Assembly (NCBI GenBank): GCA_013289835.1
Contig: JABCZG010000007.1
Location: 160,399-224,398, forward strand
Direction: 5' to 3'
DNA: 64,000 bases
DNA from: Acidobacteriota bacterium
Lineage (GTDB): Bacteria > Acidobacteriota > Terriglobia > Acidiferrales > UBA7541
Position numbers and translations under genes: made by a program. Shown one piece after another: positions 58,997-61,041 of this stretch. The notes beneath the pieces are model-generated. The model was given only the letters and a program-made list of their open reading frames with translations. It did not search any database and was not told where the DNA came from. Numbering within the stretch: position 1 is the first letter of the stretch; every line of letters begins with the position of its first letter.

Positions 58997-59043
58997 TGGC
59001 TCCCCGGGCTAGATTCGAACCAGCAACCCTTCGGTTAACAGCC
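58997..59043 (-). repeat. Partial duplicate of the tRNA-Asn 3' part (candidate att site)
   Basis: 47-bp match to 60967-61013 with one mismatch (cgaaCcag vs cgaaCtag context); continues into unrelated sequence, so not a full tRNA. Confidence 0.9.
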
Positions 59044-59217
59044 TTGAAACCAAATTAATCACAAGTTGCCGGAGCCGAGACAAATCGAGGGGAAGTAATA
59101 AGTTATGACAAAACGGGACAAGTCGGATTCGCCGTCCCTTATCAGTTTTTGTTCGCCATTTGGCGCGACTTATCGCAATTTGCATGACACCTGCATGACC
59201 CACCATGGTGTCGGCGT

Positions 59218-59643
59218 TTACGCACCCAGTGGATGCCGCCAGCGCAATCCCTGGAAACGCGCGAAATCGCTGTCCGTTGTGATGAGTTCACAGCCATGTT
59301 CGATCGCCAGCGCGGCCAGGTAAGCATCAGTTACCAGAGGCCCCTCAATCCCATTGCACAGTTTCAGAAAAAGATCCCAGTGTGTGCGACTTGGCATTAC
59401 GAGTACGGCCCTGGGCCATTCAACCAACCCGCGGCAAAATGCCAAGGCCGTTGGCATCGGTGTTGCTGGCCGAAAGATCTTTGGATTGGTTATGATTCGC
59501 AGGAAGCCGGCGAGCACAATCTCCGCGACCGCGAAGGGTTCGGGGGCCTCAACCAGCCCTCGAAGCCAAGAAGCGTATCGATGGTGCTCTGGCGCGTCCT
59601 GCCGATGCGCGTAGATGAGGACGTTGACATCCGGCAGTTGCAT
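59218..59643 (-). CDS. PIN-domain toxin, VapC-like
   Basis: LPDVNVLIYAHRQDAPEHHRYASWL..PLVTDAYLAALAIEHGCELITTDSDFARF. Confidence 0.87.
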   Translation of the reverse strand: MQLPDVNVLIYAHRQDAPEHHRYASWLRGLVEAPEPFAVAEIVLAGFLRIITNPKIFRPATPMPTALAFCRGLVEWPRAVLVMPSRTHWDLFLKLCNGIEGPLVTDAYLAALAIEHGCELITTDSDFARFQGLRWRHPLGA

Positions 59644-59648
59644 GGCAG

Positions 59649-59903
59649 TTAAGGCAGCCGCCCAAAACGATCGATATCGTCCGCCTCCATTATTGCGGCG
59701 GTCTTATCGATATTCAGCGGTGTAAAACGGCCACCCTCTCCAAACGTCACCAAATCGAAATGCTCTGGCTGCTGCGGTGCGGGCGCCTGCAAAAGGAGGC
59801 GCACTGCACGTTCGATCACCCTACTGACGCTCGTGCCCGTTTCGGCAGCACGTTTCTTCAGACGCTCTAGAAGACGATCATCGAGCGTAACCGTGGTGCG
59901 CAT
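59649..59903 (-). CDS. Ribbon-helix-helix antitoxin, VapB-like
   Basis: MRTTVTLDDRLLERLKKRAAETGTSVSRVIERAVRLLL; immediately upstream of the PIN toxin. Confidence 0.83.
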   Translation of the reverse strand: MRTTVTLDDRLLERLKKRAAETGTSVSRVIERAVRLLLQAPAPQQPEHFDLVTFGEGGRFTPLNIDKTAAIMEADDIDRFGRLP

Positions 59904-59939
59904 GATGCAGTATCATACACCAACCGCATCACTGCATCA
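59903..59939. promoter_or_regulatory. Candidate antitoxin operator: TGATGCAGT-N19-ACTGCATCA
   Basis: Perfect 9-bp inverted repeat overlapping the antitoxin start, with inner GTATcATAC. Confidence 0.55.
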
Positions 59940-60097
59940 AGGTCGGATACGAAAGTTGCTGTTTGAGTCGCAGAACCAAGATCAAGTTGAGATCGATTCG
60001 CCCTTCCCAGGCTTACTTCAAGCTTTGCTTCGATGGGGATTCGGCACTCAGCTGTTTATCAATAACCACGACTTTGGTAAAGAGTGGGGGGTTAGAG

Positions 60098-60853
60098 ATG
60101 ACGGTACAGATCAAAGGCGTACAGATTGCCAGAATCTCTGCCCTCGCGATTCGCAATATGCTTCGTGGAGTAAACGAACTGGTGTGCGCGGAATACGTGG
60201 CCCAGCGGTGCAAAGTCCCACTGCGGCGGGCAAAACAAATCGTTAAGACGCTGGTCTCCGAGGGATACCTGGAATTTGACAAGCGGTACAAAGAACTGGC
60301 GAGTCTCTACGTGCCCGGCAAAGAGAAACCGCGATACCGCCATGTTCCCTATTACAAGTTGACGGCCAAGGGAGAGAAACTGGCCCAAGCGTCCGCCTTC
60401 AGCAAAATGCCCCCCGGAAGGGCAGAGCCGATCCTAGCTGGCTTGCTCAGAAGGGTCGCGGAAGTGAACGCGACGCCGCACTATTTGTTTCGTATTCCAA
60501 CCGTGATCGTGTACGGAAGCTATGTCCGCGGCGAAGCCTTCCTCAGCGATATAGACATTGCTATTGATCTCGAACCCAAATGGGAACGTGCCTCGAAGGA
60601 GTTTGAGGTCCAAAGTAAAAAACGGGTTGATGTGGCGCAAACGAAAGGAAGGAGGTTCTCAAATATGGTCGAGCATCTGTACTGGCCGGAGCGCGAGGTC
60701 ATGCTCCATCTGAAAGCCAGGACACGGGGCTTAAGCCTTCACTCAATGGACGATTTCGTCTGCATGAGAGAGGACAACAACTTTGCGTACAAAATATTGA
60801 TAGGCAACGCCGACAGGATAGCGGAGCAGCTGGCGAAGCAGGATGGCCGCTAA
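60098..60853 (+). CDS. Winged-helix-like plus MNT (minimal nucleotidyltransferase) domain protein
   Basis: N-terminal HTH-like region (AEYVAQRCKVPLRRAKQIVKTLVSEGYLEFD), then VIVYGSYVRGEAFLSDIDIAIDL (GS-x9-DID). ATG 60098 preceded by a G-rich RBS. Confidence 0.75.
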   Translation: MTVQIKGVQIARISALAIRNMLRGVNELVCAEYVAQRCKVPLRRAKQIVKTLVSEGYLEFDKRYKELASLYVPGKEKPRYRHVPYYKLTAKGEKLAQASAFSKMPPGRAEPILAGLLRRVAEVNATPHYLFRIPTVIVYGSYVRGEAFLSDIDIAIDLEPKWERASKEFEVQSKKRVDVAQTKGRRFSNMVEHLYWPEREVMLHLKARTRGLSLHSMDDFVCMREDNNFAYKILIGNADRIAEQLAKQDGR

Positions 60854-60860
60854 CGCAACC

Positions 60861-60936
60861 CCCATAAACCTTCCCGCACTACTTTTATAACCAACAACGC
60901 TTCCGGGAAGGCTCCTCGGTCTTTTTGCTTTATGGG
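60861..60936. repeat. Nested inverted repeats CCCATAAA/TTTATGGG enclosing CCTTCCCG/CGGGAAGG
   Basis: Arms 60861-60868/60929-60936 and 60869-60876/60904-60911, read directly. Confidence 0.7.
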
Positions 60937-60966
60937 CGTATTTCAAATAGGAAAAATGTGAAAAAG

Positions 60967-61041
60967 TGGCTCCCCGGGCTAGATTCGAACTAGCAACCCT
61001 TCGGTTAACAGCCGAATGCTCTACCGTTGAGCTACCGGGGA
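60967..61041 (-). tRNA. tRNA-Asn (anticodon GTT), CCA encoded
   Basis: Minus strand: tccccggtagctcaacggtagagcattcggctGTTaaccgaagggttgctagttcgaatctagcccggggagcca; complete cloverleaf. Confidence 0.95.

What the first reader, a model, noticed from the sequence alone, without database searches (positions are those of the whole stretch)
58997..61041. Integrase-less mini-island (about 2 kb) at tRNA-Asn carrying TA and MNT genes
A 47-bp segment at 58997-59043 duplicates the 3' part of the intact tRNA-Asn (60967-61013) with one mismatch, the hallmark of site-specific integration into a tRNA gene. The DNA between holds only a VapBC-like pair and a winged-helix/MNT nucleotidyltransferase; no recombinase is visible. 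It could be a decayed island or a minimal cargo element mobilised in trans.
Basis: partly seen in the sequence, partly recalled or inferred. Interest (0 to 1): 0.85.

Follow-up and report, generated by a model that had tools for sequence, protein, structure and literature searches.

The report
Stranded integrase-less tRNA-Asn toxin-antitoxin islet
A 2-kb piece of mobile DNA carrying a toxin-antitoxin pair sits in a soil acidobacterium's asparagine tRNA gene, and it belongs to a clade-specific family of mostly integrase-less elements that pile up in rows at this one gene.

Summary
A 47-bp copy of the 3' part of tRNA-Asn (one mismatch) lies 1,970 bp from the intact gene; these are the only two copies in the genome.

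It is a site-specific insertion, not a tRNA relic. The 157 bp just inside the far copy (59044-59200) is a conserved element end, 72-82% identical beside tRNA-Asn fragments in six other genomes and stopping at the same point, a tandem arm-like repeat (59182-59200). A pattern for this junction has 37 matches in 264 Gb of prokaryotic genomes, all in Acidobacteriota MAGs, and none in viral contigs.

In this family tRNA-Asn carries tandem rows of such units. I delimited 21 closed units of 1.3-17 kb; none holds a full integrase. Cargo includes VapC/VapBC, AbiE, HigBA and MNT genes. Only two intact cognate integrases were seen beside such sites.

The window's islet is a small integrase-less member carrying VapBC plus an HTH-MNT gene. 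Its genome holds no cognate integrase (best 26% identity) and its right end lacks a confident arm site, so it is probably stranded. No clean empty site was found. Closest precedents are CIMEs and Dehalococcoides ssrA islands. Arrival without an integrase is favoured, not proven.

The parts
60967..61041 (-). intact tRNA-Asn (gtt); its 3' part 60967-61013 is the tRNA-side att copy
   Evidence: ARAGORN, Rfam 71.4 bits, repeat finder
58997..59043 (-). 47-bp copy of the tRNA-Asn 3' part: distal att copy, one mismatch
   Evidence: only second copy in the genome
59044..59200 (.). conserved class A left end of the element family
   Evidence: 72-82% identical next to tRNA-Asn fragments in G006, G009, G012, G017, G018, G077, ending at the same point; junction pattern only in Acidobacteriota
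59182..59200 (+). tandem arm-like repeat GCATGACACCTGCATGACC (11-bp period), candidate integrase arm site
   Evidence: 18.1 bits with a matrix built from other units
59218..59643 (-). VapC-type PIN ribonuclease toxin, 141 aa
   Evidence: PF01850, TIGR00028 above cut-off
59649..59903 (-). ribbon-helix-helix antitoxin (VapB role), 84 aa
   Evidence: PF01402 above cut-off
60098..60853 (+). nucleotidyltransferase (MNT) protein with an N-terminal winged-helix-like part (read from sequence), 251 aa; start chosen from relatives' N-termini
   Evidence: PF01909 above cut-off; relatives begin at this residue
60854..60966 (.). right end of the islet; no member of a known right-end family, only a weak arm-like match at 60876-60894
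58952..58996 (.). 45-bp junction segment between the end of host similarity (DUF2277 side) and the distal att; possibly the right-end stump of a lost older unit
   Evidence: similarity to G018/G021 stops here; right-end motif p=0.061

Best explanation
58997-61013 is a small non-autonomous integrative element of a tRNA-Asn-specific family. A tyrosine recombinase specific for tRNA-Asn, encoded by a related element, joined the element's attP (left end 59044-59200 with arm sites, plus a tRNA 3' half) to the chromosomal tRNA-Asn. The tRNA was rebuilt with a 3' half now coming from the element, and the displaced host 3' half became the copy at 58997-59043. Shown: both att copies, the conserved left end, family-wide tandem rows of such units, scarcity of integrases in them, and no cognate integrase in this assembly. 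Inferred: crossover in the anticodon loop, arrival without an integrase and insertion in trans, and a stabilising role for VapBC. With no helper present and no recognisable right arm site it is now probably immobile.
For: Only two tRNA-Asn 3' copies in the genome, flanking the islet. The left end is shared by units at tRNA-Asn in six other genomes and stops sharply at the arm repeat. Junction pattern: 37 matches in 264 Gb, all Acidobacteriota; 0 in viral contigs. 21 closed units, none with a full integrase; no PF00589 hit at the arrays of G001, G009, G012, G017, G020. Right-end families R1-R3 recur in different genomes with different cargo and carry no integrase trace, and R1 and R3 carry the same arm repeat as left ends. 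L197: a closed 2.3-kb integrase-less unit with the same left end and a good right end. Best integrase in the own genome is 26% identical to the family.
Against: The window's own right end fits no family and has only a weak arm match, which fits decay as well as arrival without integrase. No excision or trans-mobilisation is shown. Several right ends (Rint, R5) are plainly integrase stumps, so decay does happen in this family. The assembly is 93.7% complete, so a helper could be missed.
Confidence: 0.62

Rival explanations
1. In-place decay (classical CIME): an autonomous element with its own integrase inserted at tRNA-Asn, and a later deletion removed the integrase and right end, leaving left end, cargo and both att copies.
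For: The window's right end is not recognisable. Integrase C-terminal stumps are seen at other att sites (L106, L110, L179, L197). Autonomous relatives place the integrase exactly at this end (L098, L101).
Against: No integrase stump at 60854-60966 or elsewhere in the islet. Many units lack any stump, and integrase-less right-end families recur with different cargo.
Confidence: 0.32
2. The partial tRNA copy is a remnant of an ancestral tandem tRNA-Asn duplication.
For: Two tRNA-Asn-like sequences 2 kb apart.
Against: The copy stops in the anticodon loop, at the same place as dozens of others, and is followed by an element end that recurs at unrelated loci. Relatives have one intact gene and variable numbers of fragments.
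Confidence: 0.02
3. Assembly or binning artefact.
For: The relatives are MAGs, and repeats of this kind break contigs.
Against: The contig is 224 kb and both flanks are host genes with 86-90% orthologues in the genus. Independent MAGs show the same architecture.
Confidence: 0.04

Closest known systems
CIMEs (cis-mobilizable elements) and tandem accretion, as defined in PMC5704250
   Same: att copies at both ends, no integration or transfer genes, tandem arrangement at one target gene
   Different: CIMEs are defined as decayed ICEs/IMEs; here integrase-less right-end families recur with different cargo, suggesting repeated spread without an integrase. No ICE/IME parent was identified
ssrA genomic islands of Dehalococcoides (PMC3146451)
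   Same: many tandem islands delimited by copies of an RNA gene's 3' end; 16 with an integration module and 15 without; accessory cargo
   Different: tmRNA target and a CcrB-like serine recombinase there; tRNA-Asn target and a tyrosine recombinase here; smaller units, toxin-antitoxin-rich cargo, ~155-bp conserved ends with arm repeats, larger share of integrase-less units
Integron gene cassettes
   Same: small single-operon units, often toxin-antitoxin genes, in tandem with the recombinase encoded elsewhere (general knowledge)
   Different: the recombination site is a tRNA 3' half with flanking element ends rather than an attC hairpin, and new units lie next to the tRNA

Membership tests
tRNA-Asn-targeted element family of this acidobacterial family (described here) | tRNA-Asn 3' fragment starting in the anticodon stem-loop, joined to a class A or B end | tested here: met
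tRNA-Asn-targeted element family of this acidobacterial family (described here) | arm repeat and core-proximal motif at the right end | tested here: inconclusive
   motif p=0.058, arm match 2.9 bits; right end in no family
CIME | attL and attR retained | tested here: met
   47-bp direct repeat; functionality of the sites not testable here
CIME | no integrase and no transfer genes | tested here: met
   three genes only; no integrase trace
CIME | derived by decay from an ICE or IME | tested here: inconclusive
   no stump in the islet; stumps occur at other sites in the family
CIME | mobilised in cis by a tandem neighbour with an integrase | tested here: not met
   no neighbour with an integrase at this locus
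Integron cassette | attC recombination site | tested here: not met
   both boundaries are tRNA-Asn 3' sequence
Phage satellite or prophage | phage genes, or presence among viral contigs | tested here: not met
   no phage genes in the islet; 0 junction matches in viral contigs
DDE transposon | transposase and terminal inverted repeats | tested here: not met
   boundaries are long direct repeats of a tRNA, with no transposase
VapBC toxin-antitoxin | PIN toxin of the VapC family with an adjacent DNA-binding antitoxin | tested here: met
   TIGR00028 and PF01402 above cut-off, adjacent on one strand; activity not testable here
MntA/HepT type VII toxin-antitoxin | MntA-family antitoxin with HEPN partner | tested here: not met
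   MntA model 22 bits against a cut-off of 60; no HEPN gene in the islet

The most novel reading that the evidence does not exclude
tRNA-Asn in this acidobacterial family works as an integron-like cassette platform: short units with standard non-coding ends (core plus arm repeats on both sides) and single-operon cargo, rich in toxin-antitoxin genes, circulate without their own integrase and are stacked and exchanged by a few integrases acting in trans.
Probability: 0.35. Interest if true: 0.78.

Novelty: new variant of a known kind. Interest (0 to 1): 0.6.

Why it matters
It turns one odd repeat into a testable system: a clade-wide, sequence-defined family of tiny integrative units at a single tRNA gene, most lacking an integrase. 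That allows tests of how integrase-less elements spread, whether toxin-antitoxin cargo stabilises them, and how uncultured soil bacteria exchange single operons. The signature (tRNA-Asn fragment plus class A or B end) delimits islets that island finders keyed on integrases would miss.

Tried and rejected
Empty site 'DUF2277 then tRNA-Asn': looked for across the genus, not found; DUF2277 has another neighbour in G018/G021. The gene beside tRNA-Asn in G021 has only a 47% homologue here on another contig, not informative. Plasmid search returned mostly tRNA-like hits and one short unrelated match. The search for related loci with the MNT protein found nothing in genome contigs. A profile for right ends failed technically and was replaced by a position matrix. 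The first viral-contig scan failed and was repeated: 0 matches. That the 45 bp left of the distal att is an older unit's right end was tested and left open (p=0.061). That one of this genome's own integrases serves the islet was tested and disfavoured: at most 26% identity to the tRNA-Asn type. A tandem tRNA remnant was rejected because the copy ends in the anticodon loop and joins a conserved element end. Literature searches on tRNA islands in Acidobacteria and on tycheposons gave no matching system, judged by title and abstract.

Full report
OBSERVATION. The tRNA-Asn gene lies at 60967-61041 on the minus strand. A 47-bp copy of its 3' part, with one mismatch, lies at 58997-59043 in direct orientation. 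No other copy with up to three mismatches exists in the 4.53-Mb assembly, and the reversed control pattern gives none. The copy begins in the anticodon stem-loop and ends at the tRNA 3' end. Between the copies are VapC (59218-59643, minus), a ribbon-helix-helix antitoxin (59649-59903, minus) and an HTH-nucleotidyltransferase protein (60098-60853, plus). There is no recombinase. GC is 53.4% against 57-58% in the flanks.

SHARED ELEMENT END. BLAST of the islet against loci from the same genus showed that its first ~156 bp (59044 to about 59200) is 72-79% identical to sequence lying immediately beside tRNA-Asn 3' fragments in G006, G009, G012, G017 and G018, with homology stopping at the same place. 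Aligning 29 such junctions shows a class A end (window type and sub-types) and a class B end (AAAATCTAAGTGCCCTATCTGGTGTCGCTTAC). In G077, another genus of the family, tRNA-Asn carries a single 2,308-bp integrase-less unit whose att plus left end is 82% identical to the window's over 203 bp, ending at the same repeat. A degenerate pattern for the att/class A junction gave 37 matches in 35 stretches of the GTDB species genomes (264 Gb), all in Acidobacteriota MAGs such as gp2 AA88, AA90, AA91, AA93, AA101, AA102, AA104, gp1 AA128 and Candidatus Acidiferrum typicum. It gave none in viral contigs. The absence of any hit outside one phylum is the control against chance.

TANDEM ARRAYS. Many relatives hold two or more fragments in the same orientation. 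I delimited 21 closed units including the window's: 1.26-17.4 kb, median 4.2 kb. Examples: AbiEi/AbiEii in 2.7 kb (L179), a lone PIN gene in 1.26 kb (L112), HigB/HTH in 4.2 kb (L147), RHH-PIN and PIN units in G019 (L038), an HTH-MNT gene followed by an ORF that looks HEPN-like by eye in 1.39 kb (L195), an ATPase by eye in 2.1 kb (L194). The L194 and L195 assignments were not run against Pfam.

INTEGRASES. Intact tyrosine recombinases (PF00589) of a distinct family abut the att, with the stop codon about 25 bp from it, in only two places: L098 8385-9683 and L101 801-2405, both in G006. Counting by hand about 27 sites with at least 1 kb of right-hand sequence in eight genomes, two have an intact integrase, about five have C-terminal stumps and the rest none. 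None of the 21 closed units contains a full one; one holds a ~90-residue fragment. In the window's genome the best relative of this integrase family is 26% identical. Caveats: divergent recombinases or serine integrases could be missed, and MAG contigs break at these repeats.

RIGHT ENDS AND ARMS. Right ends fall into families shared by units in different genomes: R1 (7 members), R2 (7), R3 (5) and R5 (5), homologous over 75-290 bp and then diverging. R5 contains integrase C-terminal stumps; R1-R3 show no integrase trace. A motif near the core is shared across families: with each family left out in turn, p is 0.006 or less for all R2 members, 0.001 or less for all R1 and R5 members and four of five R3 members, and mixed for integrase-bearing ends. 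A tandem repeat with 11-bp period (GCATGACACCTGCATGACC at 59182-59200 in the window, 18.1 bits) was modelled from other units' left ends. It then scored strongly in right ends of R1, R3 and R5 at 52-66 or 144-148 bp from the core. This resembles arm-type integrase sites on both sides of a core; that function is an inference from general knowledge of tyrosine integrases. The motif was first noticed by eye, so the p values are indicative.

THE WINDOW'S COPY. The left end is intact. The right end (60854-60966) falls in no family, has motif p=0.058 and an arm match of only 2.9 bits. The far flank is a rearranged junction: DUF2277 is followed in G018 and G021 by a hydrolase gene that is missing here, and similarity stops at about 58952. 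The 45 bp up to the att could be an older unit's right-end stump (p=0.061); G077 shows an integrase stump in the equivalent place. G021 has the S9 peptidase gene next to a single unoccupied tRNA-Asn, the nearest thing to an empty site.

CARGO. The VapC-RHH-MNT trio recurs in G018:C138 and G019:C108 (81% nt identity over VapBC, MNT 55% aa) without tRNA-Asn fragments, so it is a transferable module. The MNT protein occurs in 6 of 95 genomes of the order and in metagenomes at up to 97% identity. VapBC could act as an addiction module for the islet (inference). The MNT gene's role is unknown; its match to the MntA antitoxin model is far below the cut-off.

FOREIGN tRNA HALVES. Seven fragments carry a GGAGG-type T-stem instead of GCTAG/CTAGC with pairing preserved, which fits elements bringing tRNA-Asn 3' halves from other hosts.

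COMPARISON. By anatomy the islet is CIME-like (definition in PMC5704250). The best precedent is the ssrA islands of Dehalococcoides, where 16 islands carry an integration module and 15 do not (PMC3146451). Differences are the tRNA-Asn target, the tyrosine recombinase, the long conserved ends with arm repeats, the small toxin-antitoxin-rich cargo and the strong excess of integrase-less units. I found no description of this family in the papers searched, which cover open-licence papers only.

VERDICT. The single islet is a new member of a known kind; the family with its recurrent integrase-less units is a new variant. I hold membership in the tRNA-Asn family at about 0.95, arrival without an integrase at about 0.62 and in-place decay at about 0.32.

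Noticed in passing
L051:7962-9236, L101:3-680, L094:661-1947, L197:7081-7437: Integrases of the same family (some truncated) end directly beside the 5' end of tRNA-Asn, suggesting elements that insert on the 5' side of the gene as well.
   Followed up: partly
L040:893-934, L115:6036-6073 and 6786-6824, L087:1063-1100: Copies of the 5' half of tRNA-Asn away from the intact gene; in G017 (L087) one sits beside the S9 peptidase gene, as expected if a 5'-side insertion displaced the tRNA. L115 and L087 share similar sequence next to the copy (GGTGCAGAATCA).
   Followed up: partly
L099:3201, L112:3038, L146:530, L161:2206, L163:1940, L176:10, L153:3495: tRNA-Asn fragments with a different but still paired T-stem (GGAGG type), apparently from other hosts' tRNA-Asn.
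   Followed up: partly
right ends of family R1, e.g. L103:1440-1554 and L099:10162-10276: A tRNA-like anticodon hairpin (CATTCGGTCGCGAGCCGAATG followed by CTCTACCC) lies 30-45 bp outside the core; role unknown.
   Followed up: no
G006:C149, C234, C265, C85: G006 and G019 hold 72-87 phage-integrase hits each, many in closely spaced trios.
   Followed up: no
L089:3499-5032 and L088:2443-3878: The VapC-RHH-MNT trio in a context without tRNA-Asn; a flanking stretch resembles part of another tRNA by eye.
   Followed up: partly
53974-57738: A Ku gene (56836-57738) next to a large ORF that reads as a LigD-type DNA ligase (not run against Pfam), close to this integration hotspot.
   Followed up: no
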